In this document: one piece after another, positions 4,363-19,001 of the stretch
Numbering within the stretch: position 1 is the first letter of the stretch
How the letters are laid out: each line of letters opens with the position of its first letter
Assembly (NCBI RefSeq): GCF_000826685.1
Contig: NZ_JROO01000034.1
Location: 29,351-93,350 of the forward strand
From: Streptomonospora alba
GTDB taxonomy: Bacteria > Actinomycetota > Actinomycetes > Streptosporangiales > Streptosporangiaceae
Length of the DNA: 64,000 bases
Direction of reading: 5' to 3'
Program-made: the position numbers and the translations under genes
The notes under the pieces: model-generated
What the model saw: the letters and a program-made list of their open reading frames with translations, nothing else
Databases searched by the model: none
Told to the model about the DNA's origin: nothing

Positions 4363-4437
4363 AGCCGCGCCGCCGCAGTGCCCGATCCATGCCGGATTCC
4401 CGCCCTCACCCGCCCCTCCTGTGTGAAAGCGACCGTT

Positions 4438-5778
4438 ATGCCGCTGGCCCCTGACCCCCCGCCGCCGCTCCTGCGGCTGGACGATCCCGCCCTGGACCTA
4501 CCCGCCGCCCTCGACGATCTCCACCCGGAGCACTTCCAGCGGGGGCTAGTGCCCGTCGAGTTGGAGAAGGGTGTGTCCGCCTGGCTCATGATCACCCTGT
4601 ATTGCCTCCAGCACGTCCTCAAAGACGAGCGGTACTACGCCCGCGACCCCCGCGCTTGGCGCGACCTGGGCAACGGCACCATCCCCGACACCAGCCCCCT
4701 CCACGCGCTGTATCCGCCTCGCAGGAACGCGCTGTCGGTCGACGGCGCCGAACACACCCGGCTGCGCGCCGCACTGACCGGCGCGCTGGAGGAGGTCGCG
4801 CTCCACCACGTCACCCACGAGGTGAGCCAGACCGCCGACGTGATCATCGACTGGTTCTGCACCCGCGGCGAAGCCGACGTCGTCTCCGAGTACGCCTCCG
4901 TGCTCCCGCTGCTGGTGCTGTGCCGCCTGTTCGGCATGGACCAGCACGCCGGGCTGCGGGTCGGCATGGCCATGCAGCGCCTCTGGGACGGCCAGGCCGA
5001 CGCCGCCCACGCCCACCACCAACTCCAAGACCTCCTGCTGGGCCACGCCGCCCACCGCCGCACCCAGCCGGGCCGCGACATCACCACCGGCATGATCACC
5101 CGCGGCCTGGACGACGAGGAGATCCGCGACCAGCTCGCGCTGATCATGGCCGCCGCCCACGACCCCATCGCCCACGCCATCACCAACACCCTCGCCGACC
5201 TCTTGCAGACATCCCGGCTGCACATGGTCGGCTCCACCTGGCTGATCAGCGAAACCCTCAACCACGGGATCTGGCACCACCCGCCCCTGGAGACCCTGGT
5301 GGGCCGCTTCCCCACCGTCGACGGCCTCGAGCTGGGCGGCTACCGGCTGGCTCGGGGCGACTGCCTGGTCATGGGCTTCGGCGCCGCCCAGCGCCACCAG
5401 CTGCGCACCGCCCCGCCCAGCCCCTCCAACCGGGCCTATCCGGTCTTCGGCATGGGACCGCACGGCTGCCCCCGCCTGGGCCGCGACATCGCCCTGGCCA
5501 CCGCCCAAACCGGGGTGGAACGCCTCCAGCAGCGCCTGCCCGACCTACGCCTGCGCGAGAACGACACCCCGCGGCGCGCCTCGACGGTCATCGCCGGACG
5601 CCGCGCCCTGCCTGTCACGTTCACCCCCGCCCGCCCGCTCACACCCCCCGAAACCCACCAGGAGGACCCGTGGACGCCGTCCCCCGCCCCGCAGCGCGCA
5701 TCCGCCTCGCACTCGACGACCCCGCCACCAACACGCAGCGCCTTCGAGCGGCTGGCCCGGTGGCTGCGGTTGATCTAG
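4438..5778 (+). CDS. Cytochrome P450-like protein with degenerate motifs
   Basis: The protein has 446 residues. The overall P450 plan is clear, ending in the heme-ligand loop FGMGPHGCPR (residues 337-346, Cys344). Two hallmarks are altered: the I-helix reads AAHDP (239-243) without the catalytic Thr, and the K-helix ExxR reads ETLN (272-275), losing the Arg. It may bind heme but be a poor oxygenase, or act in a substrate-handling or cross-linking role. The C-terminal ~35 residues are Pro/Thr/Ser-rich and overlap the next P450 gene by 109 bp. The start is uncertain: an in-frame GTG at 4378 would add 20 residues. Confidence 0.75.
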   Translation: MPLAPDPPPPLLRLDDPALDLPAALDDLHPEHFQRGLVPVELEKGVSAWLMITLYCLQHVLKDERYYARDPRAWRDLGNGTIPDTSPLHALYPPRRNALSVDGAEHTRLRAALTGALEEVALHHVTHEVSQTADVIIDWFCTRGEADVVSEYASVLPLLVLCRLFGMDQHAGLRVGMAMQRLWDGQADAAHAHHQLQDLLLGHAAHRRTQPGRDITTGMITRGLDDEEIRDQLALIMAAAHDPIAHAITNTLADLLQTSRLHMVGSTWLISETLNHGIWHHPPLETLVGRFPTVDGLELGGYRLARGDCLVMGFGAAQRHQLRTAPPSPSNRAYPVFGMGPHGCPRLGRDIALATAQTGVERLQQRLPDLRLRENDTPRRASTVIAGRRALPVTFTPARPLTPPETHQEDPWTPSPAPQRASASHSTTPPPTRSAFERLARWLRLI

Positions 5779-6878
5779 CCGGCCTGGGCCTGTGGGCCGC
5801 CTGCGGGGACGAGGCCCTGCGCACCGTCCAAGGCGACACCAGCGGCACGTTCCTGCGCGGCGCCGAGAACTGGCCCGCCCTGCAACGCGGCGAGTTGGAC
5901 CGCGCCCATCCGCTGGTGGCGCTGGTGGGCGACCTGCGCAGCCTCCTCGCCCTCAACGGCACCGAGCACGAACAGATCCGCCGCCTACTGCGGCCCGCGT
6001 TCACCCCGGCCGCTGTGAAACAGCGCCGCAGCCAGATCGAGGCCATCACCGAGAGGCTGCTCGATGGGATGGAGCAGGCTGGCCCTCGGGTGGACCTGCT
6101 GGATTACGCCTGGGAGTTGACCGTGGAGGTGTTCCTCGACCTGTTCGGGCTCGGTGCCGAGCACGCCGCGACACTCACCGACATCACCACCCGCGCCTTC
6201 GCATTGAGTGACCCGGGCGTGCATGAGGAAGCCCGCGCCTATATCGCCGACCTGCTCGACCGCCGCTCGCCTGAGGCCGAGGGCGACCTGATCTCGCTGC
6301 TGGCCGCGGCCCAGCGCGAGGGCGACGTGTCGCGCGCCGACGCCGTCGACACCTGCTACCTGCTGATCGTTGCGGGTTTCGACACCACCCTCGGGGCTCT
6401 GCTGAATTCCGCCCACGCCCTGCTCACTCACCCCGACCAACGCGACTTGGTCCTGTCCGGGCGGGTGGCGTGGGCGCCGGCGGTCGAGGAGTGTCTGCGC
6501 CGCTATAGCTCCGTGGCCACCCTCCCGATTGTCTTCACCACCCGCGACGTCGAGCTGTGCGGCACCGAGCTGCCCGCCGGGGCCGGGGTGCTGCTGGGCA
6601 TCGCCGCCGCCGGACTCGACCCCCACCGGTGGCAGGACCCGGAGGTCTTCGACGTCACCCGCAATCCCCGCGGCCACCTGGCCTTCGGCCACGGCCCGCA
6701 CCTGTGCCTGGGCGCCCACCTCGCCCGCCTGGAACTCGAAACGGCCCTGTCGGGCCTGTTGACCCGCTTCCCCCACCTTGAACTGGCGGGACCCGTCCCG
6801 CCGCTGCCCAGCTTCATGATCCGCCGCCCCGCCAGCCTGCCGGTGAATCTGGGCTCGGGCGCCGTCCACGCCGCCTGA
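5670..6878 (+). CDS. Cytochrome P450
   Basis: The protein has 402 residues and a canonical bacterial class-I P450 layout: I-helix AGFDTT (235-240), K-helix ECLR (274-277) and heme loop FGHGPHLCLG (339-348, Cys346). It would be a soluble monooxygenase needing a ferredoxin and reductase supplied elsewhere in the genome, since neither is encoded in this window. The GTG start at 5670 is supported by GGAGG 4 nt upstream, although this places the start inside the preceding P450 frame; the overlap suggests coupling. It is presumably a tailoring enzyme of the surrounding cluster; its substrate is unknown. Confidence 0.88.
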   Translation: MDAVPRPAARIRLALDDPATNTQRLRAAGPVAAVDLAGLGLWAACGDEALRTVQGDTSGTFLRGAENWPALQRGELDRAHPLVALVGDLRSLLALNGTEHEQIRRLLRPAFTPAAVKQRRSQIEAITERLLDGMEQAGPRVDLLDYAWELTVEVFLDLFGLGAEHAATLTDITTRAFALSDPGVHEEARAYIADLLDRRSPEAEGDLISLLAAAQREGDVSRADAVDTCYLLIVAGFDTTLGALLNSAHALLTHPDQRDLVLSGRVAWAPAVEECLRRYSSVATLPIVFTTRDVELCGTELPAGAGVLLGIAAAGLDPHRWQDPEVFDVTRNPRGHLAFGHGPHLCLGAHLARLELETALSGLLTRFPHLELAGPVPPLPSFMIRRPASLPVNLGSGAVHAA

Positions 6879-7894: not shown

Positions 7895-8728
7895 GTGGCG
7901 TGGTTGACGATCATGTCTTTGAATCTCCAACACGGCGGCATCCAGACCGGCGACGGCCGCCCCGACGACCGGTGGCCCGAGCTGGCCGCCACCATCAACG
8001 CCGCCTCACCCGACATCCTCTGCCTGCAGGAATGCCACGGCTGGACCGACCACCTCCACCACCAGGTCTACCGGGCCGAGCGGGACCTGGACATGCGCCT
8101 GGCCGGACTCGTCGGCGGCCGCGCCGTCGGCGGCAACGCCGTCTTCTACCGGCCCGGCGCCGTCGCCCAGTGCGGGTGGGCCGAGGCCTACGCCCGCGAG
8201 CTCTACACCGGCCTGGGCGTCGCGCTCTTCGCGGTCGAGGGGGTGCCCGAGCGGTTGGCCGTGGTCAGCACGCATCTGAGCACCACCACCGCCGAGCAGC
8301 AGGTCGAGGAGGCCATGCGGGTCGCCGACCGCGTCACCCGCTACGGCGGCTACGGGGTGATGATCGGCGACATCAACGCCCACCCGCTGTTGGACGGCGG
8401 CCGGTTCCCGGATCCGGCCGGCATCAAGCCGCTGGACCGCACCTGCCGCTACGACGAGGCCGACCAGCCCGACCGGCGCGTGGCGCGCCGCCTGCACCGC
8501 GCCGGGCTTACCGATGCGGCCGCCCACCTGGCCGCCCGGACACACAACACCGACCACTACGCGCCGACGGGCACGGGAAAGATCCGGGTGGACCGGGCCC
8601 TGCTGACCCTGCCCCTGGTCCCGCTCCTGAGCGGCTACACGCGCATCTCCACCGCCAGCGACCACGACGCCATCGCCATCACGCTCGACCGCCCCGATGC
8701 CGGCCCAGCCGCATCGGCTGCTGCCTGA
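7895..8728 (+). CDS. Endonuclease/exonuclease/phosphatase-family protein
   Basis: The protein has 277 residues. The EEP fold motifs are in order: MSLNLQHGG (residues 7-15), LCLQECHGW with the metal-binding Glu46, VVSTHLS, GDINAHPLLD and the C-terminal SDHDAIAITL. Metal-dependent phosphodiester or phosphomonoester hydrolysis is the family chemistry; the substrate cannot be predicted. The GTG start is preceded by AGGAAGAGG. There is no signal peptide, so it is cytoplasmic. It sits directly upstream of the ABC exporter gene and may remove a phosphate group from a protected intermediate, which is speculation. Confidence 0.82.
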   Translation: MAWLTIMSLNLQHGGIQTGDGRPDDRWPELAATINAASPDILCLQECHGWTDHLHHQVYRAERDLDMRLAGLVGGRAVGGNAVFYRPGAVAQCGWAEAYARELYTGLGVALFAVEGVPERLAVVSTHLSTTTAEQQVEEAMRVADRVTRYGGYGVMIGDINAHPLLDGGRFPDPAGIKPLDRTCRYDEADQPDRRVARRLHRAGLTDAAAHLAARTHNTDHYAPTGTGKIRVDRALLTLPLVPLLSGYTRISTASDHDAIAITLDRPDAGPAASAAA

Positions 8729-8783
8729 CCCATGGCCCGCAGCCGCTGCCCGTGATCGCTGTCCCGACGTGCTCTGGAGTTGT

Positions 8784-10724
8784 ATGAACCGGCGCCGCCC
8801 ACGCCGCCCACGCCGCCCTGCCCCGGCCACGCCCGCAGGACTGCCCGAACTGGCCACCAGCCGCTTCCACCCCTGGTTCGGCGACCTGCAGCGCCTGTCG
8901 CTGTGGCGCATGCTCACCCGCCTGCCCGCCCTCATCGCCACCGCCCTGCGCTGGAGCTGGAAAGCCAGCCCCCGCGACACCTTGCTCACTGTCGGGCTCA
9001 ACGTCGCCGCCGGCGCCTTCTCCGCGATCGTGCTCACCGCGGTGGTGGGCATCCTGCAGGGCCTGTTCGCCGAGGGTCCCACCCCCGAGCGGCTGCAGGC
9101 CGCCCTGCCCTCGCTGCTGCTGGCCGGGGCCGCCGCCCTCACCCGGGCCGCGCTGCGCTCCGCAGCGATCTGGGCCCAAGGCCGGCTCACCCCGATGGTC
9201 GAGCGGGTCGTGGAGGTCGAACTCGTCTCGCTGACCACGGCCACCCGCCTGGAGGCCTTCGACGACTCCGACTGGTGCGACCAGATCCACCGCGCCCGCA
9301 CCCTGGGCGTCTACGAAGCCGGACGCATCACCGGCTACGCCGCCGACATCGCCACCGAGCTGGTCAGCCTGCTGGCCGTGGCCACCGTCGTCACCGTCCT
9401 GCATCCCGTGCTGCTGCCGCTGCTGGCGCTGACCGTGGCCCCGGTCGGCTGGGCCGCGATCCGCTCGGCGCGGATGCGGTATGCGCGGATGCGGGCGCTG
9501 AGCACCTCCAACCGGCTGCTGTATATGTACACCCACGCCATGACCGAGCGCGAGGCCGCGGCCGAGCTGCGCGCCTACGCGATGCGCCCCATGCTGCTGG
9601 CCGAATTCGCCCGCATCTCCGACCATGTGCGCGACGCCCTCCTGGCCGTGGTCGGGCGCCAGACCACCACCCGCGCTGTGGGCGACGTGCTGGGCGGCAT
9701 CGCAACCCTGGCCACCTACGCCGCCCTGGTGGCGCTGCTGCTGGCCGGGCTGATGCCGCTGGCGGTGGCCGGGGCCGCCTACCTCGCCCTGGGCCAGGGC
9801 AAAGCCGCCCTGGATCGGCTCATGAGCGCCGTCAACTCCTGCTACGAATCCGGGCTGTATCTGTCGGACCTGCTGGAGGCCTTCGACCACGCCCGCCGCC
9901 GCACCCCGCCCGCCACCGGCGGAACCTCCCCGGGCCCGTTGAAGGAGCTGCGGGTGCAGGGCGTGGACTTCGCCTACCCCGCCACGGAGGCCAACGCGCT
10001 CACCGGAGTCAGCATCACCGTCGAACGCGGCCGGGTCGTGGCCCTGGTCGGCGAGAACGGATCGGGCAAATCCACCCTGGCCACCCTCATCTCCGGGCTG
10101 TACGTGCCCGATGCCGGGACCATCACCTGGAACGGCACCGGCATCGCCGACCTGGCCCCCGGCGAGCTGCACGCACGGATCGGGCTGATCCGCCAGCAGT
10201 ACCACCAGTGGCCCTTCTCCGCCGAACGCAACATCACCATGGCCGCCCCCGGCGCCGCCGAGCCCGACCGGCTGGGTCGGGCCTTGCGCCTCAGCGGCGC
10301 CGACCAGGTGGTCGAGGACCTCGCCCACGGGTTGGACACGCCGCTGGATACCCGGTTCAAAGACGGCGAGGATCTCTCCGGCGGGCAGCGCCAGCGCATC
10401 GCCGCCGCCCGCGGCCTCTATCCCCAGGCTGATCTGGTCATCGCCGACGAGCCCACCGCCGCCCTGGACGCCCGCGCCGAGGAGCGGCTGTTCTCCACCT
10501 TCCAGGCTGCCGCCGACGGGGCCGCGGTGTTGCTGATCACCCACCGGTTGGCCAGCACCCGCAGCGCCGACTGGATCTACGTCCTCGACCACGGCCACGT
10601 CGTCGAACAGGGCACCCACACCGACCTGATCACCCACGGCGGGCTGTATGCCGAGCTGTACGGCATCCAGGCGGCCGCCTACAACGGAGCCACCCCGAAC
10701 CGGCACACCGAAGAAGTCCCGTAG
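8784..10724 (+). CDS. ABC transporter, fused permease and ATPase (exporter)
   Basis: The protein has 646 residues. After a basic N-terminus, several hydrophobic segments between about residues 60 and 350 form the membrane domain. The nucleotide-binding domain carries Walker A GENGSGKST (about 423-431), signature LSGGQRQR (about 531), Walker B LVIADEPTAAL (about 551) and the H-loop histidine in LLITHRLAS. This is a half-transporter of the lipid/peptide exporter type that works as a dimer. The start is set by TGGAG 4-8 nt before ATG. Lying just upstream of the pentapeptide gene, it is the likely exporter of the cluster product. Confidence 0.9.
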   Translation: MNRRRPRRPRRPAPATPAGLPELATSRFHPWFGDLQRLSLWRMLTRLPALIATALRWSWKASPRDTLLTVGLNVAAGAFSAIVLTAVVGILQGLFAEGPTPERLQAALPSLLLAGAAALTRAALRSAAIWAQGRLTPMVERVVEVELVSLTTATRLEAFDDSDWCDQIHRARTLGVYEAGRITGYAADIATELVSLLAVATVVTVLHPVLLPLLALTVAPVGWAAIRSARMRYARMRALSTSNRLLYMYTHAMTEREAAAELRAYAMRPMLLAEFARISDHVRDALLAVVGRQTTTRAVGDVLGGIATLATYAALVALLLAGLMPLAVAGAAYLALGQGKAALDRLMSAVNSCYESGLYLSDLLEAFDHARRRTPPATGGTSPGPLKELRVQGVDFAYPATEANALTGVSITVERGRVVALVGENGSGKSTLATLISGLYVPDAGTITWNGTGIADLAPGELHARIGLIRQQYHQWPFSAERNITMAAPGAAEPDRLGRALRLSGADQVVEDLAHGLDTPLDTRFKDGEDLSGGQRQRIAAARGLYPQADLVIADEPTAALDARAEERLFSTFQAAADGAAVLLITHRLASTRSADWIYVLDHGHVVEQGTHTDLITHGGLYAELYGIQAAAYNGATPNRHTEEVP

Positions 10725-10788
10725 CCGCACGCCGGTGAGTCCGATTCCGATCCGTCCGCCCGCGTCCAGTCCACGGAAGGGGGCAGTC

Positions 10789-10806
10789 ATGCGCTACGAC
10801 CACTGA
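10789..10806 (+). CDS. Pentapeptide RiPP precursor gene, Met-Arg-Tyr-Asp-His (BytA-like)
   Basis: ATG CGC TAC GAC CAC TGA encodes MRYDH. A very strong ribosome binding site, GGAAGGGGG (10775-10783), ends 5 nt before the ATG, which is hard to explain unless the tiny frame is translated. A perfect hairpin follows, and 78 bp later a P450 gene begins. This reproduces biarylitide clusters, in which an 18-bp gene bytA (MRYYH, MRYLH and similar) precedes the P450 BytO that cross-links the Tyr and His side chains; the MR leader is then removed. Tyr3 and His5 are in the required positions; Asp in the middle position is a variant I do not recall from characterised members. Assignment is by pattern and context, not experiment. 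Confidence 0.82.
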   Translation: MRYDH

Positions 10807-10814
10807 TGCCCACC

Positions 10815-10850
10815 CGGCGGCCGGGCCCTAACGAATGCGCCCGGCCGCCG
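10815..10850 (+). promoter_or_regulatory. Perfect hairpin between pentapeptide and P450 genes
   Basis: CGGCGGCCGGGC (10815-10826) and GCCCGGCCGCCG (10839-10850) are perfectly complementary 12-nt arms with a 12-nt loop. There is no U-tract, so it is more likely an attenuator or 3'-end stabiliser than a full terminator. It would allow much more precursor mRNA than P450 mRNA, a common arrangement in RiPP operons. Confidence 0.65.
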
Positions 10851-10884
10851 CACCCCACCGGACAGCGAAGAGGTCAGGCTCGCT

Positions 10885-12072
10885 ATGCCAACTCCCGGAT
10901 ACGATCCGCTGAATCCAGAAACCCTCCGTGACCCGTACCCGGCCTATGCGCTCATGCGCGAGCACGCCCCCGTGCTTTGGCACGACCGCATGGGCTGCTG
11001 GGTGCTCTCCCGCTACGCCGACTGCGTGGCCGTCCTGCGCGACCACGACACCTTCGCGCGCGACCCGCGGCGTGTGGGCGAAGCGATCCCCGAGCCCAGT
11101 CTCAGCGTGCAGTCCCTCGATCCCCCCGAGCTGGGGCCGCTGCGCCGCCTCCTGATGAACGCCGTACACACCTGCGACCTGAACGGCCTCGCCCAACGCA
11201 CTCGCGAACGGTCCGACGCACTGCTGTCGGCTCTGGCCACCCAGACAACGTTCGACGTCGTGGAGGACTTCGCGTCCCCGCTCTCGCTCGATGTCATCTG
11301 CGACCTGCTGGGCGTGGATCGACCCGAGCGGGGATCCTTCGCCGAAGCCTCCGACGCGATCATGCGCAGCATGGACGCCGGCCTGCTGCCGGAGACCGCC
11401 GAGCCGGGGCGCCGTGCACGCCAGCAGCTGAGTGCACTGGTGGCCTCCTGGTTCGCCGAGTCGGACGCGCCGGGTCTGCTCGCGGAGATGCGGCGCGGCG
11501 CCCCAGCCGCCGGAGTCCCCGAGACCTATGTGCGCAACACCGCCCGGGTGCTGTTCCAAGGCGGCTACAGCACCATGGTAGCCGCCATCGGCAACGTAAC
11601 CGCCCAGCTCATGCAATACCCGGGCCTACTGGAGCACCTGAGCGAGCCCGAGACCCGCACCACCGGGGTGGACGAACTGATCCGCTACGACGGACCCGTG
11701 CAGGGCACAAGCCGCACCGCTACCCGGGCGGTGACCATCGGCGGCACCCGCATCGAGGCCGGACAGACCGTGCTCGTGCTGCATGCGGCCGCCAACCACG
11801 ATCCCGACCAATTCCCCCGGCCCGACGAACTCCTGCTCGACCGGTCCCCCAACCCTCACCTGGGGTTCGGCTGGGGTCCCCATGCCTGCGCGGGCACGCT
11901 ACCGGCCCAGATCGCCCTGCACGCGGTGGTCGAAGCCCTGGCCGCGCGCCCTCGGCTTTGTGCGGCGGGGGCCTTCGTGCGGCGCCGCACCGCCACCATG
12001 CGCGGCTGGCAACACCTGCCCGCCGCTTTCATCCCCGCGGCCTGCACAGCCCCGTCCGGGAGGCACCCGTGA
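10885..12072 (+). CDS. Cytochrome P450, probable Tyr-His cross-linking enzyme (BytO-like)
   Basis: The protein has 395 residues, the usual length of biarylitide P450s. ExxR is ELIR (264-267) and the heme loop is FGWGPHACAG (328-337, Cys335). The I-helix reads GGYST (226-230): the Thr is kept but the usual acidic residue before it is Ser, consistent with a radical-coupling rather than an oxygen-inserting P450. It starts 78 bp after the MRYDH gene and overlaps the next gene by GTGA. Predicted role: forming the biaryl bond between Tyr3 and His5 of the pentapeptide. Substrate assignment rests on gene order. Confidence 0.85.
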   Translation: MPTPGYDPLNPETLRDPYPAYALMREHAPVLWHDRMGCWVLSRYADCVAVLRDHDTFARDPRRVGEAIPEPSLSVQSLDPPELGPLRRLLMNAVHTCDLNGLAQRTRERSDALLSALATQTTFDVVEDFASPLSLDVICDLLGVDRPERGSFAEASDAIMRSMDAGLLPETAEPGRRARQQLSALVASWFAESDAPGLLAEMRRGAPAAGVPETYVRNTARVLFQGGYSTMVAAIGNVTAQLMQYPGLLEHLSEPETRTTGVDELIRYDGPVQGTSRTATRAVTIGGTRIEAGQTVLVLHAAANHDPDQFPRPDELLLDRSPNPHLGFGWGPHACAGTLPAQIALHAVVEALAARPRLCAAGAFVRRRTATMRGWQHLPAAFIPAACTAPSGRHP

Positions 12073-13439
12073 GACTACTCATCGGCAACCACATCGACGA
12101 CTCGATCCGCCTACGGCCCGAGACACGCGCCTGGACCCAGCGCATCGTCTGGTTCGCCCGCGACGGCGACCTGATCGTGCTCCCCGACCACCCCGACAGC
12201 CGCTTCGTGGCCTATGCGACCGCGCTGACCGGCGTCGACTCCACCACGCTGCGCTTCCATAGTCCCCCAGGCGGCCGTTACGGCCGCGCCAGCTTGGACC
12301 CGCTCAGCCTCACCGCGCCCGCGTTCGTCGCCGCCGTGGCCGCCGACCTCGGCGACGTCGAGGAGGTATTCGCCCTCTGGCCCTCGGCGCAGGTGACTCG
12401 CCTGGCCGAAGCGCTCGGCGTCGCCGACCGCTTCCCCGGAGCCAAGTTCTTCGCCCAAGGCGGCGGAGAGGTGGCCAACAACAAAGCGACCTTCCGCGCC
12501 CTGGCCGCCGGCGCCGGTGCCGCGACCCCCGCGGGGGCGGTGTGCCGCAGTCAAGCCGAGGCCGCGGCGGCGACCCACGCGCTACTCAAAACCACCACTG
12601 CGGTGGTGGTCAAACAGGCCCACAACGGCGCCGGCGTGGGCAATCAGGTCGTGACCGAGGACCCCGCGGTGGCCACCGGCCATGCCGGGGCCCGGCACCA
12701 CCATCAACTGCCGCCCGGTGCAGGAGCCGTCGAAGCCTACTGGGAGCAGCACTGGGCATGGGCCTCAGCCGCCGACCGGTTCCCCGTCGTCGTCGAGGAA
12801 TTCCGGCCCGGCGCCACTTCGGTCTATGCCGAGTTCTACGCCGGCGACGACGGTGTCCGTCCGACCGAGGCCGGGGCGCTCTACTACGCGCAGGGGCGGT
12901 TGAGCCACCAGATCGTCCCGCTGCGCTCCGAGCACCGGCAGCGGCTGGTGGGTGCCGCGGCACCATTGGCGCAGGCCTATCAGCGCCTGGGCTATCGGGG
13001 CCCACTTAGCGCCGACGCCCTTCTGGAAGACGGCGGAGGCATCCTCTTCACCGAAGTCAATGCACAAGTCTCCGGATCGCTGCACATCTACCAGGTGATC
13101 GCCCACGCCATCGTGCAGGCCGATACCCCGCCCCAGCGCCTCGTCGTGGAGCACCACGTACCGCCCCGATGGAACGTGTCCGGGTTCGAGGAGTTCCTGC
13201 AGGCGCTCGACGAGCTGGACGTCGCCTACGACCCGCGTACCCGAACCGGAGTGATCGTGTCGATGCCCGTCATCGCGCTGGAACCGGGGGCGGCACGCTT
13301 CGTGTTCTGCATCGCCTATGCGACCGAGGCCCATCGCCGCCACGTCTACGCGCTTCTGGACGAGCGCTTCACCACCCCATCCGCATCGGCCGCGACCGGC
13401 CCCGCAGCCGCGGAGGCGTCCCCAGCACCGAGCGAATGA
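12069..13439 (+). CDS. ATP-grasp peptide ligase with pre-ATP-grasp domain (PGM1-like)
   Basis: The protein has 456 residues. The N-terminal part (about 1-110) resembles a pre-ATP-grasp domain. The ATP-grasp core follows, with a nucleotide-binding strand and Gly-rich loop VVVKQAHNGAGVGNQVV (about 179-195) and a metal-binding C-terminal segment FTEVNAQVSGS (about 327-337). The overall plan recalls PGM1/KtmF ligases of pheganomycin and ketomemicin biosynthesis, which join a guanidino acid to the N-terminus of a peptide. The GTG start overlaps the P450 stop (GTGA), so the two are coupled. I infer ligation of a cap residue to the cross-linked tripeptide. Confidence 0.75.
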   Translation: MRLLIGNHIDDSIRLRPETRAWTQRIVWFARDGDLIVLPDHPDSRFVAYATALTGVDSTTLRFHSPPGGRYGRASLDPLSLTAPAFVAAVAADLGDVEEVFALWPSAQVTRLAEALGVADRFPGAKFFAQGGGEVANNKATFRALAAGAGAATPAGAVCRSQAEAAAATHALLKTTTAVVVKQAHNGAGVGNQVVTEDPAVATGHAGARHHHQLPPGAGAVEAYWEQHWAWASAADRFPVVVEEFRPGATSVYAEFYAGDDGVRPTEAGALYYAQGRLSHQIVPLRSEHRQRLVGAAAPLAQAYQRLGYRGPLSADALLEDGGGILFTEVNAQVSGSLHIYQVIAHAIVQADTPPQRLVVEHHVPPRWNVSGFEEFLQALDELDVAYDPRTRTGVIVSMPVIALEPGAARFVFCIAYATEAHRRHVYALLDERFTTPSASAATGPAAAEASPAPSE

Positions 13440-13455
13440 GACAGAAGGAGCGTCG

Positions 13456-14427
13456 ATGCATTCCCCTTGCCCGACATGGCCGGCGCCGGCGACACAGTTG
13501 CGCCCCAGGTTCGCCCCCGACCGGCTAGTCCACGACCTGGCCCGGCTGAGGCGACACCGCTGGGCCAAGCAGCGCATCCACAACGCCTCCGGAGTCGGCG
13601 CCGAAACCGACGTCGACTGGCGCGTGCTCCCGCTGCGCAGCCCCGGCGGGGTCCCCGAGCGCACGGACCCCGGCGGCCCCGGCCCCGACGGTTTCGCCCC
13701 CACCGAATGGACCCACCACGCCCCCTACCTCGCCGAAGTCCTGGCCACCCTCCCGGCGCCGGTGAACGCGGCCCGCCTGATGGCGCTCGCGCCCGGTGCG
13801 GTATCAGCCGAACACTGCGACCCCAAGTACGCCCTGACCCGCGGCCTGGCACGGATCCACCTTGTACTTTCCACCAACCCCGACGCGGTCCTCGTCTTGG
13901 ACGGCACCGCCTACCGCTGGCAGCCGGGCCAGCTGTGGTTCGGCGAGTTCGCTCGCCCCCACCTGGTCCGCAACGACGGCGCCACGACCCGCGTCCACCT
14001 GGTCATCGACGCCCTGCTGACCGCCGAACTCGCCACATGGTTCCCCCGCGACTGGGCCGAGGCCATGCACGCAGGCGCCGCCCTGATGAACCGGCCCGCC
14101 GCCGCTTTGGACTCCTCACCAGCGACCACCGTGCGCCTGCCCGCGTCCTTCCTCGACTTCGCCCCCACCGGCGGGGGCGACTCCATGCCCGCCCCCGACG
14201 AGCCCGCCATCGAGGCGCGTGTGGAACCGGCTTGGGATCAGTGGCGGCTGACCGTAGCCGACGGCCGCGTCTTCGCCCTGGTCCACCTCGGGGAGGGGGA
14301 GTTCCGCTTCTGCGGCTGGAGCGAGCAGCGCACACTCCAGATCCGTGAAAGCGACGTGCTGCTGCGCACCCGCACCCCCACGTCCAGCCACCCGATGCCG
14401 ATCCCGGCACGTCCCAACGAACACTGA
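13456..14427 (+). CDS. Aspartyl/asparaginyl beta-hydroxylase-like oxygenase
   Basis: The protein has 323 residues. The double-stranded beta-helix core carries EHCDPKYALTRGLARIHLVL with a candidate metal-binding His120 and Asp122, and FARPHLVRNDG with His169, then THLVID-like VHLVID. This matches the 2-oxoglutarate/Fe(II) Asp/Asn hydroxylase family. About 80 C-terminal residues form an additional domain that I do not recognise. AGAAGGAG lies 5 nt before the ATG. Because the predicted core peptide contains Asp, beta-hydroxylation of that residue is an attractive inference; hydroxylation of the capping amino acid is equally possible. Confidence 0.72.
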   Translation: MHSPCPTWPAPATQLRPRFAPDRLVHDLARLRRHRWAKQRIHNASGVGAETDVDWRVLPLRSPGGVPERTDPGGPGPDGFAPTEWTHHAPYLAEVLATLPAPVNAARLMALAPGAVSAEHCDPKYALTRGLARIHLVLSTNPDAVLVLDGTAYRWQPGQLWFGEFARPHLVRNDGATTRVHLVIDALLTAELATWFPRDWAEAMHAGAALMNRPAAALDSSPATTVRLPASFLDFAPTGGGDSMPAPDEPAIEARVEPAWDQWRLTVADGRVFALVHLGEGEFRFCGWSEQRTLQIRESDVLLRTRTPTSSHPMPIPARPNEH

Positions 14428-14438
14428 AAGGCCTCGGT

Positions 14439-15581
14439 ATGCGACTCAACAGCCACAACGAATGGGCGCCGCTGAAAGAGATCGTCGTCGGCTCGGCCCA
14501 GAACTACACCTCCCACGACCGGGAGGTCTCCTTCGACCTCTTCCACCACGAGAACCTGTTCCGCTCCGATTGGGCCTATCCCCGCCTGCACACGGCGCGC
14601 GGGCCCGTCGAAGGACGGCAATGGCACCTCAAGCAGCGCTACGTCGACGAGCTCCACGAAGACGTGGAAGACCTCGCTCAACTGCTGGTCGGCCTCGGCG
14701 TCACCGTCCACCGCCCCATCCCGCTGCCGCCCGACGCCGCCCCCATCGCCGGTCTGGGCTGGCAGGCACCACCCACTCCCGCGCTCAACATCCGCGACAA
14801 CACGCTCATCCTCGACAGCGAGATCATCGAAACCCCGCCGACGATCCGCTCGCGCTACCTGGAGACCCGTCTGCTCGCCCCGGTGTTCCAGCACTACTAC
14901 GACCGCGGCGCGACCTGGACGACCATGCCGCGCCCCCTGCTGACGGACGCCTCCTTCGACCTGTCGTATGCACGCGATACGACCACCGCCCTCGGGGGGC
15001 CCACCGAGCCCATCGACGAGCCCGCGCCCTCGCCCTACGACGTCGGCTTCGAAATGCTGCTCGACGGCGCCCAATGCCTGCGCTTGGGTCGCGACCTGCT
15101 GGTCAACATCGCCACCGAGAACCACCGCCGCGGCTGCGACTGGCTGGAGCGCCACCTTCGGGGCCGCTACCGGATCCACCGCATCGACCGCATAGCCGAC
15201 AACCACATCGACTCCATGCTGCTGGCACTACGCCCCGGCGTCTTCCTGGCCCGCCACGCCGACCTGCGCGACCAGCTGCCCGCACCGTTCGACACCTGGA
15301 AGGTGATCGTCCCTCCCGAACCCGCCGAAGGGAACTTCCCCGTCTACGACGACGGCGATCTGCTGCTGACCAGCCCCTACATCGACCTGAACGTGCTGTC
15401 CATCGACACGGAAACCGTGCTGGTCAACGCCGACTGCCCCGAGCTCGCCACGACGCTGGACAAGGAAGGCTTCACCGCCATCCCGGTCCGCCACCGCCAC
15501 CGGCGCCTCTTCGGCGGCGGGTTCCACTGCTTCACCCTCGACACCGTGCGCGAAAGCGGTCTGGAGGATTACCGCCAGTGA
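14439..15581 (+). CDS. Glycine-amidinotransferase family enzyme
   Basis: The protein has 380 residues, typical of the L-Arg:Gly amidinotransferase family. The start MRLNSHNEWAPLKEIVVGS, the segment FEMLLDGAQCLRLGRDLLV, the catalytic His256 in NHIDSML and the nucleophilic Cys364 in GGGFHCFTLD all match. Family chemistry: transfer of the amidino group from arginine to an amine, via a Cys-amidino intermediate, giving a guanidino compound and ornithine. GAAAGG precedes the ATG, and the stop overlaps the next start. Its pairing with a PGM1-like ligase mirrors pheganomycin and ketomemicin clusters and points to a guanidino-acid building block. Confidence 0.88.
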   Translation: MRLNSHNEWAPLKEIVVGSAQNYTSHDREVSFDLFHHENLFRSDWAYPRLHTARGPVEGRQWHLKQRYVDELHEDVEDLAQLLVGLGVTVHRPIPLPPDAAPIAGLGWQAPPTPALNIRDNTLILDSEIIETPPTIRSRYLETRLLAPVFQHYYDRGATWTTMPRPLLTDASFDLSYARDTTTALGGPTEPIDEPAPSPYDVGFEMLLDGAQCLRLGRDLLVNIATENHRRGCDWLERHLRGRYRIHRIDRIADNHIDSMLLALRPGVFLARHADLRDQLPAPFDTWKVIVPPEPAEGNFPVYDDGDLLLTSPYIDLNVLSIDTETVLVNADCPELATTLDKEGFTAIPVRHRHRRLFGGGFHCFTLDTVRESGLEDYRQ

Positions 15582-16846
15582 CCCGCATTCTGCTCTTGGA
15601 GGCCGCCGGCCCCGAGTCGGGCGCGCTGGCCCGCACCGCAGCGCGCCAGAACTTCGCCGTCTACGCCGCCACCCACCCCGCGCGCTACAGCGATTACCCG
15701 CCCTGGCTGCGCGAAATACTGACCGATTGGCTCGCCACCGACTTCACCACCCCCGACCGCGCACTGGCCGAGATCACCGCCTTCGCCCGCAGCAACCGGA
15801 TCGACGCCGTCCTGACCGCCAGCGAATACCTCACCCCACTGGCCGCCCGCGCATGCGCAGCATTGGGACTGCCCGGAAACGACCTCGGCGCCGCTGAGGC
15901 AGCGCGCAACAAGGTGACCATGGCCGCCCGCTTTGACCGCTGCGGCGTCGATGCCCCACCGACGTCGGTCCCCCACAGCGCCGATGCGGCCGCGGCCCTG
16001 ACCCGCCGACCCGGCGGGCTGCCGTGCGTCGTCAAACCCGCCGAACAGGCCGGATCCCACGGCGTCACCATCGCCCATGACACCGACCAGGCGGTCGAGG
16101 GCTACCGCCGCGCCCGGCGTCTCGCCTACGAAAGCACCTACGGCCTGTCTTTGGATACCCGCGCGCTCGTGCAGCCGCTGGTAGCCGGTACCGAGTACAG
16201 CGTCGAATCGATCACCGCCCAAGGACGCAGCCATCATGTGTGCATCACCCGCAAGCACACCGTCGCCGGTATCGAAACCGGGCATGACCTGCCGGAGCTC
16301 CTGCCGCCCCACACCCGCCGCCGGATTCTCGCCGAGACCGACAAGGCACTCGCGGCGCTGGGCGTCTGCAACTCCGCCTCGCACACCGAGGTCATCGTGG
16401 AGCCCTCCGGGCGCTGCCGCATCATCGAAGTCGGCGCCCGCACCGGCGCCGGCCGCATCGGCTTTCTGATCGGCTACGCGCTGGGTATCGACTGGTGGCA
16501 AGCCTGCATCGACACCAGCCTTGCCTGCCCGGTCGAGCTCTCTGCCACACGCAGCCGCCACGCCGCCATACGTTTCCTCACCAGCTCGCGCCACGGGACC
16601 CTGCAGGGTCTGGACCATCTCCCCACCACCGAACCCGACGTTCCCGAGATCCACCTCCGCGCGGCCGTGGGCGAGCGGATGGAACCGACCAGCGGCAACA
16701 GCACACGCTTAGGCAGCTTCATCACCGTCGGCAGCACCTCGGAGGCGCTGTCGCGGCGCGCCGACGAACTGTTGGGCACCATCCGCGTCCGTCTCGCATC
16801 AAACGCGGCGACCCCGCCCCCGGAGACGGGAGTGCAGTACACATGA
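15578..16846 (+). CDS. Second ATP-grasp ligase (carboxylate-amine ligase)
   Basis: The protein has 422 residues. The Rossmann-like N-terminal domain starts VTRILLLEAAGPESGALA; the ATP-grasp core has CVVKPAEQAGSHGVTI (about 150-165) and the metal/ATP site EVIVEPSGRCRIIEVGARTG (about 271-290). It resembles L-amino-acid ligases and carnosine-synthase-type enzymes, forming an amide bond with ATP hydrolysis to ADP. The start is GTG overlapping the amidinotransferase stop, and it overlaps the methyltransferase downstream (ATGA). A second ligation step implies the final product carries at least two extra building blocks or an amide cap. Confidence 0.85.
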   Translation: MTRILLLEAAGPESGALARTAARQNFAVYAATHPARYSDYPPWLREILTDWLATDFTTPDRALAEITAFARSNRIDAVLTASEYLTPLAARACAALGLPGNDLGAAEAARNKVTMAARFDRCGVDAPPTSVPHSADAAAALTRRPGGLPCVVKPAEQAGSHGVTIAHDTDQAVEGYRRARRLAYESTYGLSLDTRALVQPLVAGTEYSVESITAQGRSHHVCITRKHTVAGIETGHDLPELLPPHTRRRILAETDKALAALGVCNSASHTEVIVEPSGRCRIIEVGARTGAGRIGFLIGYALGIDWWQACIDTSLACPVELSATRSRHAAIRFLTSSRHGTLQGLDHLPTTEPDVPEIHLRAAVGERMEPTSGNSTRLGSFITVGSTSEALSRRADELLGTIRVRLASNAATPPPETGVQYT

Positions 16847-17628
16847 GGACGCCCGCGAGCACCTCCCGGGAACCCACCGCGCAGAGCTTTGACCCGCTCT
16901 TCCCCGGAGACCAGACCGCGACGGGCTTTGCCCGCATCGCGCATCTGGCCGACCCGACACTCCCGCCAACGATCGCGCCCTGCTCATTTCTGACGTCCGA
17001 CCTGCTGAAGCACATCGCCCAGGCCTTGGCGCTGCGACCTGGGCACGTGTTGGCCGATCTGGGCTGCGGCAACGGCGGCCCCGGGATGTGGCTGGCCGAC
17101 CACTCCAACGTCCGCCTGATCGGTATCGACTTCTCCGCAGCCGCCCTGACCCAGGCGACGCGGCGCACGACGGACTTCGCCTGCGGCCATCGCGCCCGCT
17201 TCGTCCTGGCCGATCTGGCCGCCACCAGCCTGCCCGACGCCAGCACCGACGCCGCCCTATCCATCGACGCGCTGCAATACCCGGGCGATCGCCGCGCCGC
17301 CGCAGCCGAAGCCCATCGCATCCTGCGCCCCGGCGGACGACTCGTCCTCACGGGGTGGCACCCTCACCGACCCGGCGATGCACGGCTGCCGCCACGCCAT
17401 CGCCACACCGACTGGCCTGCCACCCTGCACCGTGAGGGATTCACGCACATAACGGTGACCACGCGACCTGCCTGGGACAGCGCCTACCAGGCCATGTACC
17501 GTCTCGCCCTCGAACACGGCGACCCCGGTTCCGACACCGCGCTGCAGGGCCTGCAGCAGGAGGCCCAACAGCGCTTGCCCACCGCCCATCTCCTGCAACG
17601 CGTCGCCGTGACAGCAACGGCACGCTGA
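16843..17628 (+). CDS. Class I SAM-dependent methyltransferase
   Basis: The protein has 261 residues. Motif I VLADLGCGNGGPG starts near residue 68, the acidic loop IGIDFSAAALTQA follows, and post-I and motif IV-like segments (FVLADLAATSLPDAS, then RILRPGGRLVLTGW) are present. This is a small-molecule or peptide N/O-methyltransferase of the UbiE/cyclopropane-synthase-like group. It is the last gene of the rightward operon and is translationally coupled to the ATP-grasp gene. It probably methylates the ligated peptide; the site is unknown. Confidence 0.87.
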   Translation: MRTPASTSREPTAQSFDPLFPGDQTATGFARIAHLADPTLPPTIAPCSFLTSDLLKHIAQALALRPGHVLADLGCGNGGPGMWLADHSNVRLIGIDFSAAALTQATRRTTDFACGHRARFVLADLAATSLPDASTDAALSIDALQYPGDRRAAAAEAHRILRPGGRLVLTGWHPHRPGDARLPPRHRHTDWPATLHREGFTHITVTTRPAWDSAYQAMYRLALEHGDPGSDTALQGLQQEAQQRLPTAHLLQRVAVTATAR

Positions 17629-17653
17629 AGACCGCTGTACCGCGCCCGGCACC

Positions 17654-18637
17654 TCAGCCCAGGTCGTCGGCGATCTGCCGCATGAGGGCATAGGTCTGGT
17701 CCACATCCCCGTGACCGGTGCGGTGGCGCTCCAACCGGATCGCGCTGATGTGGCGAGCGGTGTAGACGAGCTGCCTCCACCGGGACGCGGGCGTGTCCGG
17801 AAGCTGCCCGTAGGTCTGCCAGAAGGCCTCGCGCTCGCCCCCGCGCCGGCGCGTGGCCATGTAGATCGTCCAGTCGGCAGCCGGGTCGCCCCACAAGGTT
17901 CGGTCGCAGTCGAACACCCCGGTGATCTGGGGTTCCGCAGCGTCGGGATCCAACATGACGTTCACGGTCCACAGGTCGCCGTGGAGCAGGCGCGGCTGAG
18001 TCACCTCGTCCAGCACCGCACGGTGCTTATCGGTAACTGCGATGACCCGGCGAAGATCGGCCGAGTCGAGACCGGCGTCGTCGATGTCGGCGGCCGCGTC
18101 CTCCAAGGCCGCAAGGAACGCTTCGCTCCAGTTGGCGAAGCCGGGACCGCCCACGGGTCCGAAGTGTGCTCCGCAGACGTCGTGGATGCGGCGCGCGATC
18201 TCACCCATCTGCGCGAACAAGGCCGACCACTGCTCCCGGGGGTACGTCCCCAAATGCTCGGGAGCCGGAACGCCGGGTACCACGGTCTGCAGCAGGTAGT
18301 CGCGCGCCACAAGCTCATGGGTGAAATCCGCGGCGACCACCTGTGGCATCAGATGGGCGATCGGTGCCAAGAACGGGAGGCTGGCGTATTCGTTACGCAT
18401 CAGCCGGCGCTCGCTGCGGTTCTGACGCGCAGGTTCCGGAGCCACCCGGAGGATCACCGGTGCCGTGCCGTCCGTTTCGAGGCGGTAGGTGGTGTTGTAC
18501 ATGCCACCGCCCAGCTCGACAGCGGCATTCGCCCGGACGTCCGGACCGAACGCACGGTGCACGATGTGGTGGACATCATCGGCGGTCACAGGGCGTTGGA
18601 AGCCGGAGGAATCGCGTTCAATTGCCCGAAATTCCAT
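17654..18637 (-). CDS. Aminoglycoside-phosphotransferase-family kinase
   Basis: The protein has 327 residues. The APH/choline-kinase fold motifs are the catalytic loop LLHGDLWTVNVML (HGDxxxxN, about residue 217) and the metal-binding VFDCDRTLWGDPAAD (about 238). The family phosphorylates hydroxyls of antibiotics or small metabolites. GGAG precedes the ATG at 18637 by 8 nt; longer in-frame starts lack such a site. It is convergent with the operon ending at 17628. It is a candidate self-resistance or prodrug-forming kinase, but fructosamine-kinase-like metabolism is possible too. Confidence 0.85.
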   Translation of the reverse strand: MEFRAIERDSSGFQRPVTADDVHHIVHRAFGPDVRANAAVELGGGMYNTTYRLETDGTAPVILRVAPEPARQNRSERRLMRNEYASLPFLAPIAHLMPQVVAADFTHELVARDYLLQTVVPGVPAPEHLGTYPREQWSALFAQMGEIARRIHDVCGAHFGPVGGPGFANWSEAFLAALEDAAADIDDAGLDSADLRRVIAVTDKHRAVLDEVTQPRLLHGDLWTVNVMLDPDAAEPQITGVFDCDRTLWGDPAADWTIYMATRRRGGEREAFWQTYGQLPDTPASRWRQLVYTARHISAIRLERHRTGHGDVDQTYALMRQIADDLG

Positions 18638-18791
18638 ATCGAGTTCTCCCATCGCCACATGTCCGCGGTCCACACTTCTCCTCTTGTGACATGGCTCAGC
18701 GCCCGATGTCGCCGCGATCAAATGATCTTCTCGATCGAGCGCGCAGGGCGCACCCTTGCCACAAGTTCGATGACACCTGAGAGTGTCCCAT

Positions 18792-19001
18792 CTATCTTTC
18801 CCACCGGTGGCCAGATGGGGCTTCCGCTGATGCAGCCGAAACTGCAATACGCGGATCGGGCCTCCAGTTGTCACCAGACCCGTTGGGGTGGCGGAAGTAC
18901 TTGGTGGCGTGGGCGATGACGTGCCACCCCAACGTGTACTGGGGCAACCCGGTAGGCATGATGTCGAGGCGGCTAGCTGGTGAAGCGACGCTGGTACTCA
19001 T
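18792..19001 (-). pseudogene. Phage terminase large subunit, N-terminal fragment
   Basis: The frame on the complement reads LDIMPTGLPQYTLGWHVIAH and then KYFRHPNGSG with a WRP motif, the characteristic start of actinophage/prophage terminase large subunits. Similarity appears to stop after about 50 residues, and the frame then runs into unrelated sequence. No ATPase or nuclease motifs survive. Its start overlaps the end of the terminase small subunit remnant, as in intact phage packaging modules. It marks the right boundary of the first biosynthetic region. Confidence 0.6.

What the first reader, a model, noticed from the sequence alone, without database searches (positions are those of the whole stretch)
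10789..10806. An 18-bp gene (MRYDH) that looks like a biarylitide precursor
Seen: ATG-CGC-TAC-GAC-CAC-TGA with GGAAGGGGG 5 nt upstream, a perfect 12-bp hairpin after it, and a P450 gene 78 bp downstream. Known: biarylitide clusters pair an 18-bp pentapeptide gene (M-R-Y-x-H) with a P450 that joins the Tyr and His side chains. Inference: this is a new member with Asp in the middle position. Standard gene callers cannot report such a gene, so it would be missing from routine annotation.
Basis: partly seen in the sequence, partly recalled or inferred. Interest (0 to 1): 0.95.

Follow-up and report, generated by a model that had tools for sequence, protein, structure and literature searches.

The report
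18-base gene for a guanidine-capped peptide
An 18-base gene here encodes the five-residue peptide Met-Arg-Tyr-Asp-His, which the P450 encoded next to it is predicted to cross-link and the rest of a conserved gene set would likely cap with a guanidine group; an RNA hairpin predicted right behind such tiny genes offers a way to find them.

Summary
In detail: MRYDH, its Shine-Dalgarno sequence, a 12-bp hairpin and the P450 start lie where stated. The gene is real: all 29 non-duplicate loci whose P450 has the window's QGGYST I-helix carry an M/V-x-Y-D-H minigene just upstream; Tyr, Asp and His never vary, codon 2 does (Arg only in the window). So the biarylitide reading holds, but it is not a new kind: a 2026 paper reports Asp at position 4 with a Pgm1 ligase in 47 of 277 biarylitide clusters. 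Inferred pathway: cross-linked Tyr-Asp-His, capped with a guanidino acid, with a kinase for self-protection. A GC hairpin starts 7-33 nt behind most biarylitide minigenes examined (49 of 55 at p 0.05), even where the minigene lies far from the P450. A scan blind to peptide sequence (Shine-Dalgarno, short ORF, hairpin) returns only MRYDH in the window. The chemistry is untested, and the P450 lacks the two residues that contact His-5 in RufO.

The parts
10775..10783 (+). Shine-Dalgarno sequence GGAAGGGGG of the minigene
   Evidence: read directly
10789..10806 (+). 18-bp precursor gene, MRYDH
   Evidence: conserved as M/V-x-YDH in 29 of 29 QGGYST-type loci
10815..10850 (+). 12-bp perfect GC hairpin, starting 8 nt after the stop, no T run behind it
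   Evidence: counterpart behind most biarylitide minigenes examined
10885..12072 (+). cytochrome P450 (395 aa) of the biarylitide/RufO group, I-helix QGGYST
   Evidence: Pfam PF00067; the ten best solved-structure matches (250-320 bits) include RufO (8SPP/9DUJ) and P450Blt (8U2M), the next match has 143 bits; tree
12069..13439 (+). Pgm1-type ATP-grasp peptide ligase
   Evidence: PF18604; PGM1 3WVQ 258 bits; present in 29 of 29
13456..14427 (+). aspartyl/asparaginyl beta-hydroxylase-like enzyme
   Evidence: PF05118 (scanned from 13453); only weak solved-structure matches; present in 27 of 29
14439..15581 (+). amidinotransferase of the Arg:Gly amidinotransferase/StrB1 family; GGGFHC motif of the human enzyme aligned
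   Evidence: no Pfam or NCBIfam hit at 0.001; 67-75% identity in the other 28 of 29 loci
15578..16846 (+). second ATP-grasp ligase (L-amino acid ligase type, LAL_C2)
   Evidence: present in 29 of 29 (cut by the contig end in L036)
16843..17628 (+). SAM methyltransferase, optional member
   Evidence: PF13649; present in 8 of 29
17654..18874 (-). APH-type phosphotransferase on the opposite strand, predicted self-protection kinase (start codon uncertain: the ORF has 406 codons, the aligned stretch in most relatives about 320-335)
   Evidence: PF01636; present in 28 of 29, the exception being at a contig end
8697..10724 (+). ABC exporter-like gene 64 bp upstream, possibly in the same transcript; not part of the unit in relatives
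   Evidence: PF00005; only distant ABC hits in other loci

Best explanation
The 18-bp gene at 10789-10806 encodes MRYDH and is predicted to be the precursor of a biarylitide-type cross-linked Tyr-Asp-His peptide that the adjacent operon likely caps with a guanidino acid. Shown: the minigene, its conservation, its hairpin-forming sequence and the conserved gene order P450 - Pgm1 - hydroxylase-like - amidinotransferase - L-amino acid ligase - (methyltransferase) - opposite-strand phosphotransferase. Inferred: (1) the minigene is translated and the hairpin sets the 3' end or stability of a short precursor-rich transcript; (2) the P450 joins the Tyr-3 and His-5 side chains; (3) Met-Arg is removed by a protease outside the unit, as proposed for other biarylitides; (4) the amidinotransferase makes a guanidino acid from arginine and an amino acid; (5) the Pgm1-type ligase joins that acid to the N-terminus of the cyclic tripeptide, as PGM1 does in pheganomycin, and the second ligase adds a further amino acid; (6) the hydroxylase-like enzyme hydroxylates a residue, not necessarily Asp; (7) the phosphotransferase protects the producer from the product.
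For: Minigene: 29 of 29 non-duplicate QGGYST-type loci have it; codon 3 is TAC 28/TAT 1, codon 4 GAC 29, codon 5 CAC 29, while codon 2 takes six codons for five amino acids. Window P450 is sister to the other 28 (support 100/98). Unit: Pgm1 29, amidinotransferase 29, second ligase 29, phosphotransferase 28 (L036 ends at a contig end), hydroxylase-like 27, methyltransferase 8, each of 29; the genes present keep order and strand in 29 of 29. Over 60 loci the amidinotransferase (60% identity or more) and phosphotransferase (45% or more) are both present in 30, both absent in 28, amidinotransferase alone in 2 (L036 contig end, L037). In 392 genomes of one genus an amidinotransferase of 69% identity or more occurs in 10, exactly the 10 in which M-x-YDH lies beside a Pgm1 homologue; the 12 other genomes with a match at E 1e-120 (best 60-65% identity) have no ATG-x-YDH (some of these genomes also seem to be in the set). 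PGM1 acylates peptide N-termini with substituted acetic acids (PMC8359417, passage); PGM1 links its peptide to a guanidinoacetic acid and the pathway's associated genes include amidinotransferases (PMC8939145, passages). Hairpin: 49 of 55 minigenes at p 0.05 or less; blind scan gives only MRYDH in the window and one aromatic-x-aromatic pentapeptide in each of 51 of 59 loci. A related P450 accepts Asp at position 4 (PMC12951456, passage). No nitric oxide synthase in the own genome.
Against: No chemistry was observed. The two residues that contact His-5 in RufO (H235, E239) are Q225 and S229 here, in 29 of 29, so the cross-link type or even its partner could differ (numbering carried over by hand from the alignment). 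The position that clamps Arg-2 in RufO (F69) is Pro61, which fits the Ser/Phe/Thr leaders of the relatives better than the window's Arg. The hydroxylase-like enzyme also sits near MRYAY, MRYLH and MRYRH precursors, which weakens Asp as its target. In the one related cluster tested (savT, savH; PMC13417212 section 12) an amidinotransferase and a hydroxylase gave no modified product. The P450 is rare: at E 1e-80 in 1 of 6 genomes of the genus, 5 of 297 of the family, 9 of 345 of the order and 6 of 394 of the class, own genome included. The phosphotransferase has only weak matches to characterised ones. The 29 loci are one P450 clade, so the counts are not independent events.
Confidence: 0.68

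Rival explanations
1. The P450 does not cross-link but nitrates or otherwise oxidises Tyr-3 or another residue of the peptide, which is then broken down to supply an unusual amino acid, as RufO does for rufomycin.
For: RufO and the window P450 are related (288 bits); the His-5 contacts are lost here (Q225, S229), so another reaction is conceivable.
Against: No nitric oxide synthase in the own genome, 97% complete (the control rings in 2 of 14 known genomes). His-5 and Asp-4 are invariant in 29 of 29, which a mere tyrosine carrier would not obviously need. Pgm1-type ligases fit a peptide product.
Confidence: 0.12
2. The minigene plus hairpin is a regulatory leader (attenuator) of the P450 operon and its peptide has no product.
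For: A short ORF followed by a hairpin before a gene is the anatomy of an attenuator; a stem is there in 29 of 29.
Against: A stem follows the minigene also where the minigene lies downstream of the P450 (L022, L026, L027, L048, L042, L074, L086, L090, L094) or kilobases away (L033, L039, L037, L088, L089); 12 of these 14 reach p 0.05, L026 (0.10) and L037 (0.06) do not. Tyr-Asp-His is conserved, not a run of one regulatory codon. P450s of this group are known to act on such pentapeptides (PMC10929621, part 1 of 3 read; PMC12186263).
Confidence: 0.05
3. It is an ordinary member of the classical MRYxH cross-linkers whose final product is only cyclic Tyr-Asp-His; the other genes belong to a separate pathway.
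For: The sav cluster yielded only the plain cyclic tripeptide although it has an amidinotransferase and a hydroxylase.
Against: Gene order and strand are kept in 29 of 29 loci over several families and on 4 Streptomyces plasmids; the P450 active-site signature differs from the MRYxH group.
Confidence: 0.12
4. The 18-mer is a chance match.
For: The bare pattern is no commoner than its reversed control in 392 genomes; 4 of the 17 genomes with a true stop have no P450 or Pgm1 homologue in the fetched locus of 1.8-3 kb.
Against: 29 of 29 at the same place beside the P450; the four chance-like cases lack a hairpin (scores 5-6), while the three distinct P450- or Pgm1-linked minigenes measured in the same call have 13-22.
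Confidence: 0.02

Closest known systems
Asp-4 biarylitide clusters with a Pgm1 ligase (47 of 277 clusters, PMC13417212; abstract, sections 5, 8, 12, 13 and passages read)
   Same: Pentapeptide with Asp at position 4, P450 of the same group, Pgm1 homologue; the authors call them hybrids with pheganomycin.
   Different: The main text, by the terms I searched, names no amidinotransferase, second ligase or phosphotransferase for this group, no hairpin, and does not print MRYDH or MSYDH; its figure 2 image, Table S1 and supplements were not available to me, so they may.
Classical biarylitides (MRYYH, MRYLH; P450Blt)
   Same: 18-bp precursor gene, P450 next to it; in the MRYxH loci examined also a hairpin behind the minigene.
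   Different: In the MRYxH loci examined the enzyme has an I-helix His (and mostly Glu) and mostly an aromatic residue facing Arg-2; here Q225/S229 and Pro61, and ligases plus amidinotransferase follow.
Pheganomycin pathway (PGM1)
   Same: PGM1-type ligase and an amidinotransferase.
   Different: No type III polyketide synthase among the neighbouring genes scanned; the peptide would be a cross-linked tripeptide from a pentapeptide; so the guanidino acid should be a simpler one (inference).
sav cluster of Saccharothrix variisporea (MRYVH, savT amidinotransferase, savH hydroxylase; PMC13417212 section 12)
   Same: Biarylitide P450 with amidinotransferase and Asp/Asn beta-hydroxylase homologue.
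   Different: Val at position 4 and no Pgm1 ligase named; only the unmodified cyclic YVH was obtained.
RufO / rufomycin nitration pathway
   Same: Related P450 and pentapeptide.
   Different: Those clusters co-encode nitric oxide synthase, absent from this genome.

Membership tests
Biarylitides (RiPP class) | 18-bp gene for a pentapeptide with aromatic residues at positions 3 and 5 (M-x-Y-x-H) near a P450 | tested here: met
   motif M-x-Y-x-H from PMC8708641 figure legend
Biarylitides (RiPP class) | P450 of the biarylitide group by sequence | tested here: met
   ten best solved-structure matches at 250-320 bits include 8SPP (RufO) and 8U2M (P450Blt), next 143 bits; inside the tree of P450s with pentapeptide genes
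Biarylitides (RiPP class) | precursor frame conserved beside the homologous P450s | tested here: met
   29 of 29 QGGYST loci; of 60 non-duplicate loci with a P450 of at least 38% identity, 3 (L044, L049, L082) have no pentapeptide that I could find
Biarylitides (RiPP class) | biaryl cross-link between residues 3 and 5 | not testable with these tools
   needs enzyme assay or mass spectrometry
Classical MRYxH cross-linkers (P450Blt/RufO-like active site) | I-helix His and Glu that contact His-5 | tested here: not met
   Q225 and S229 in 29 of 29; contacts from PMC12186263 section 11
Asp-4 / Pgm1 hybrid subgroup of PMC13417212 | Asp at position 4 and a Pgm1 homologue in the cluster | tested here: met
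   definition
Rufomycin-type nitration pathway | co-encoded nitric oxide synthase | tested here: not met
   no PF02898 match in the own genome
Pheganomycin pathway | PGM1 ligase with amidinotransferase | tested here: met
Pheganomycin pathway | type III polyketide synthase and other genes for the dihydroxyphenyl guanidinoacetic acid | tested here: inconclusive
   none among the neighbouring genes scanned with Pfam; the whole genome was not searched for it

The most novel reading that the evidence does not exclude
The Tyr-Asp-His unit makes a guanidine-capped, self-toxic biarylitide antibiotic: the opposite-strand phosphotransferase that tracks the amidinotransferase is the producer's shield, which would make this the first biarylitide group with antibiotic activity. 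The P450 of this group, with Gln/Ser in place of His/Glu, forms a cross-link not yet described. And the Shine-Dalgarno - 18-bp ORF - hairpin cassette is a general, mobile gene format by which the smallest known protein-coding genes can be found without knowing their peptide.
Probability: 0.3. Interest if true: 0.8.

Novelty: new member of a known kind. Interest (0 to 1): 0.57.

Why it matters
The function of biarylitides is unknown; those assayed showed no activity (PMC13417212 section 12), apart from possible effects of related peptides on plants (section 5). This group comes with a kinase that tracks the guanidine-making enzyme, which hints at an active product and names the cluster to test. 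The hairpin rule turns an 18-bp gene, which evades gene callers, into something that can be searched for: it recovered precursors 1.3 kb from the P450 (L085, L087) that my 700-bp search had missed, and stands behind two Asn-4 precursors 8.7 and 10.1 kb from the P450 start (L033, L039), beyond the 3-kb range of the published search. In the four annotated Streptomyces plasmid records of the unit no gene is listed at the minigene (that table is incomplete by its own description).

Tried and rejected
Tried and set aside: (a) Rfam scan and tRNA scan of the window: nothing. (b) Consensus terminator scan of 8500-19000: the hairpin is not reported; no T run follows it (0 of 29 loci have TTTT in the 11 nt behind the stem), so I do not call it a classical terminator. 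(c) Folding energy of the minigene region: not unusual against shuffles. (d) Asp-4 as the obvious target of the Asp/Asn-hydroxylase-like enzyme: weakened because homologues stand near MRYAY (L041, L043, L051), MRYLH (L047, L052) and MRYRH (L094). (e) A salt-bridge partner for Asp-4 in the P450: Arg59 is present in 36 of 37 enzymes with a YDH/YNH precursor and in 3 of 18 others, but its position relative to the peptide was not modelled, so I claim nothing. (f) Nitration: not taken as main reading. (g) An overlapping ATG at 10806 (TGATG) that opens a frame of about 41 codons: no ATG at that place in the other 28 loci, taken as chance. (h) No structure prediction was run: without the peptide it would not decide the cross-link. 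(i) A literature search for the hairpin with six terms was uninformative (745 papers, 8 listed); the narrower one, biarylitide with hairpin, gives one review in which each word occurs once (PMC11002830, listing only).

Dropped rows: L081, L084, L091 and L093 were removed as duplicates of L045, L046, L049 and L047 (equal contig lengths). L058 (partial P450) was left out of the synteny table and L059 (partial) of the P450 alignment. L053, L054, L055, L057, L060 and L061 were left out of the tree. Loci under 38% identity were left out of the 60-locus and 59-locus counts (the 59 are the 60 without the window). Eight of the 59 loci gave no hit in the blind scan: three have the minigene but a hairpin under the threshold (L012, L025, L026), two Lysinibacillus arrays have no clear hairpin (L034, L038), three have no minigene found (L044, L049, L082). 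Of its 68 hits 17 were not the pentapeptide, two of these being longer readings of the same minigene.

Full report
WHAT IS THERE. At 10789-10806 (+) the sequence reads ATG CGC TAC GAC CAC TGA, preceded by GGAAGGGGG five bases upstream, followed by a 12-bp perfect GC hairpin (10815-10850) and, 78 bp after the stop, by the ATG of a 395-residue P450. It is the only aromatic-x-aromatic pentapeptide ORF in the window on either strand and the only ATG-x-Tyr-Asp-His-TRR in the 5.9-Mb own genome. The bare pattern alone is weak evidence: in 392 genomes of one genus 19 match (17 with a true stop), against 24 matches of the reversed control by my count. The evidence is in the context.

CONSERVATION. P450s with the window's I-helix signature QGGYST number 29 without duplicates, and all 29 have an M/V-x-Y-D-H minigene whose start lies 96-153 bp before the P450 match. 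Codons: position 3 TAC 28, TAT 1; position 4 GAC 29; position 5 CAC 29; position 2 Ser 19, Phe 4, Thr 3, Gly 2, Arg 1 (the window). The window is sister to the other 28. So Tyr, Asp and His are the selected part and position 2 is a loose leader. YDH also occurs with a second P450 type (I-helix NASFGT/NASYGT), where the minigene lies downstream of or away from the P450 (L022, L026, L027, L048, L037), and two such clusters carry M-x-Y-N-H instead (L033, L039). The P450 is rare: at E 1e-80 in 5 of 297 genomes of the family, 9 of 345 of the order and 6 of 394 of the class, own genome included, and in no other of the 6 genomes of the genus.

THE UNIT. In the window the P450 is followed, with overlapping or closely spaced starts, by a Pgm1-type ATP-grasp ligase (PF18604; PGM1 structure 3WVQ, 258 bits), an Asp/Asn beta-hydroxylase-like enzyme (PF05118), an amidinotransferase (solved relatives: human Arg:Gly amidinotransferase, inosamine-phosphate amidinotransferase, HsvA, SxtG; the GGGFHC motif is aligned, and one solved chain carries Ala in place of its Cys), an L-amino-acid-ligase-like ATP-grasp enzyme, a methyltransferase and, on the opposite strand, an APH-type phosphotransferase. 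Among the 29 loci: Pgm1 29, amidinotransferase 29, second ligase 29, phosphotransferase 28 (the other at a contig end), hydroxylase-like 27, methyltransferase 8; the genes present keep order and strand in 29 of 29. The amidinotransferase and phosphotransferase go together: both in 30, neither in 28, amidinotransferase alone in 2 of 60 loci. In 392 genomes of one genus, an amidinotransferase of at least 69% identity is in 10 genomes, and these are exactly the 10 with M-x-YDH beside a Pgm1 homologue. Of 5 plasmid records with a P450 match, 4 (all Streptomyces) carry the unit.

THE ENZYME. RufO holds Arg-2 with Phe69 and His-5 with His235 and Glu239 (PMC12186263, passages and section 11). Carried over by hand from the alignment, these are Pro61, Gln225 and Ser229 in the window; the last two are invariant in 29 of 29. 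Over 55 enzymes with a known precursor, an aromatic residue at the Phe69 position goes with Arg or Lys at peptide position 2, and its absence with another residue, in all but three (window, L047, L083; the enzymes are related, so this is not 55 events, and the window itself is one of the exceptions). This co-variation supports that the pentapeptide is the substrate. The loss of the His-5 pair means that the cross-link type cannot be carried over from P450Blt; double mutants at these positions change what P450Blt makes (PMC10929621, part 1 of 3 read).

THE HAIRPIN. Starting 7-33 nt after the stop, a stem (G-U allowed) is present behind the minigene in 29 of 29 QGGYST loci (score 9 or more; 24 of 29 exceed all six coding controls of their own locus). 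Perfect Watson-Crick stems of 9 bp or more within 90 nt are in 20 of 29, against 0 of 116 coding stretches. Over all biarylitide types 49 of 55 minigenes pass p 0.05 against dinucleotide shuffles: 27 of 29, 6 of 8 and 16 of 18 in three groups. The stems differ in sequence (24 distinct best perfect arms in 29). The hairpin goes with the minigene, not with the P450: it is there when the minigene is downstream or kilobases away. The two Lysinibacillus arrays lack a clear one. A scan that ignores the peptide (Shine-Dalgarno, 5-9 codon ORF, stem of score 11 within 40 nt) gives one hit in the 64-kb window, MRYDH, out of 21 Shine-Dalgarno-led short ORFs; in 59 loci (1.17 Mb, 497 candidates) it gives 68 hits, 51 of them an aromatic-x-aromatic pentapeptide, one in each of 51 loci. 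Its limits were chosen after seeing these loci, so this precision is in-sample. Four chance-like YDH pentapeptides without P450 or Pgm1 nearby have no such stem. No T run follows (0 of 29), and the folding energy of the window's region as a whole is ordinary. Prior knowledge: the myxarylin paper lists a supplementary figure of the predicted structure of the bytA-bytO gap beside a terminator hairpin (PMC8708641, figure-list passage only), so it has been drawn for one system; the main texts of PMC13417212 and PMC12951456 do not hold the words hairpin, stem-loop or terminator; a library search for biarylitide with hairpin finds one review where each word occurs once (listing only). I read the hairpin as a 3'-end or stability element of a precursor-rich short transcript; this is inference.

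HOW IT LIKELY WORKS. Ribosomal MRYDH is bound by the P450, which likely joins Tyr-3 and His-5. Met-Arg is then cut off by a protease outside the unit, as proposed for other biarylitides (PMC12951456, passages). The amidinotransferase would make a guanidino acid; the Pgm1-type ligase would join it to the new N-terminus, as PGM1 acylates peptide N-termini with substituted acetic acids (PMC8359417, passage) and uses a guanidinoacetic acid in pheganomycin (PMC8939145, passages; the original Noike 2015 paper was not read). The L-amino-acid ligase would add or build a further amino acid. The target of the hydroxylase-like enzyme is open. The phosphotransferase, tied to the amidinotransferase, would be self-protection.

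WHAT IS KNOWN. PMC13417212 (July 2026; abstract, sections 5, 8, 12, 13 and passages read) reports 277 biarylitide clusters, 47 of them with Asp at position 4 and a Pgm1 homologue, and calls them hybrids with pheganomycin. The window's locus falls in that group. MRYDH is printed in the main text of no paper of the library, and a search for at least two of MSYDH, YDH motif, Tyr-Asp-His, biarylitide, PGM1 ligase and guanidinoacetic finds only that paper; most subscription papers and all supplements were out of reach. So: a new member of a known kind, with a wider conserved pathway and a hairpin format that I did not find described as general.

Noticed in passing
L033 18720-18737, L039 20131-20148: M-x-Y-N-H minigenes (MMYNH, MIYNH) with hairpin, 8.7 and 10.1 kb from the start of a NASFGT-type P450, in clusters with Pgm1, amidinotransferase and APH homologues; outside a 3-kb search range.
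   Followed up: partly
L074 9210-9227: MNYNH minigene with hairpin 73 bp behind a biarylitide-type P450 on a Bacillus arachidis plasmid, two ATP-grasp genes nearby.
   Followed up: partly
L083 9274, L094 9162, L042 11287, L050 2336: Further precursor types MSYRH, MRYRH (two copies in L094), MDYSH and MRYEY beside biarylitide-type P450s; not checked against the published list.
   Followed up: no
L082 (P450 near 10921): P450 50% identical to the window's with I-helix QSGYSS but no aromatic pentapeptide within 700 bp and no SD-short-ORF-hairpin within 4.5 kb.
   Followed up: partly
L044 and L049 (P450 at 10001): Two P450s grouping with the NASFGT branch, I-helix IGSYGT/IGSFGT, and no minigene found; possibly a changed substrate.
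   Followed up: no
window 4378-5778 and 5670-6878: Two further P450-like genes on the same strand, about 28-29% identical to the biarylitide P450; no Pfam hit at E 0.001 for the first. Relation to the unit unknown.
   Followed up: no
L141 10025-10042: MAYDH with a strong Shine-Dalgarno-like sequence but no P450 or Pgm1 homologue in the 20-kb stretch and no hairpin behind it: taken as chance.
   Followed up: yes
L041, L043, L051, L047, L052, L094: The Asp/Asn-hydroxylase-like enzyme accompanies MRYAY, MRYLH and MRYRH precursors too; apart from the start residue the only position common to these peptides and M-x-YDH is Tyr-3.
   Followed up: partly
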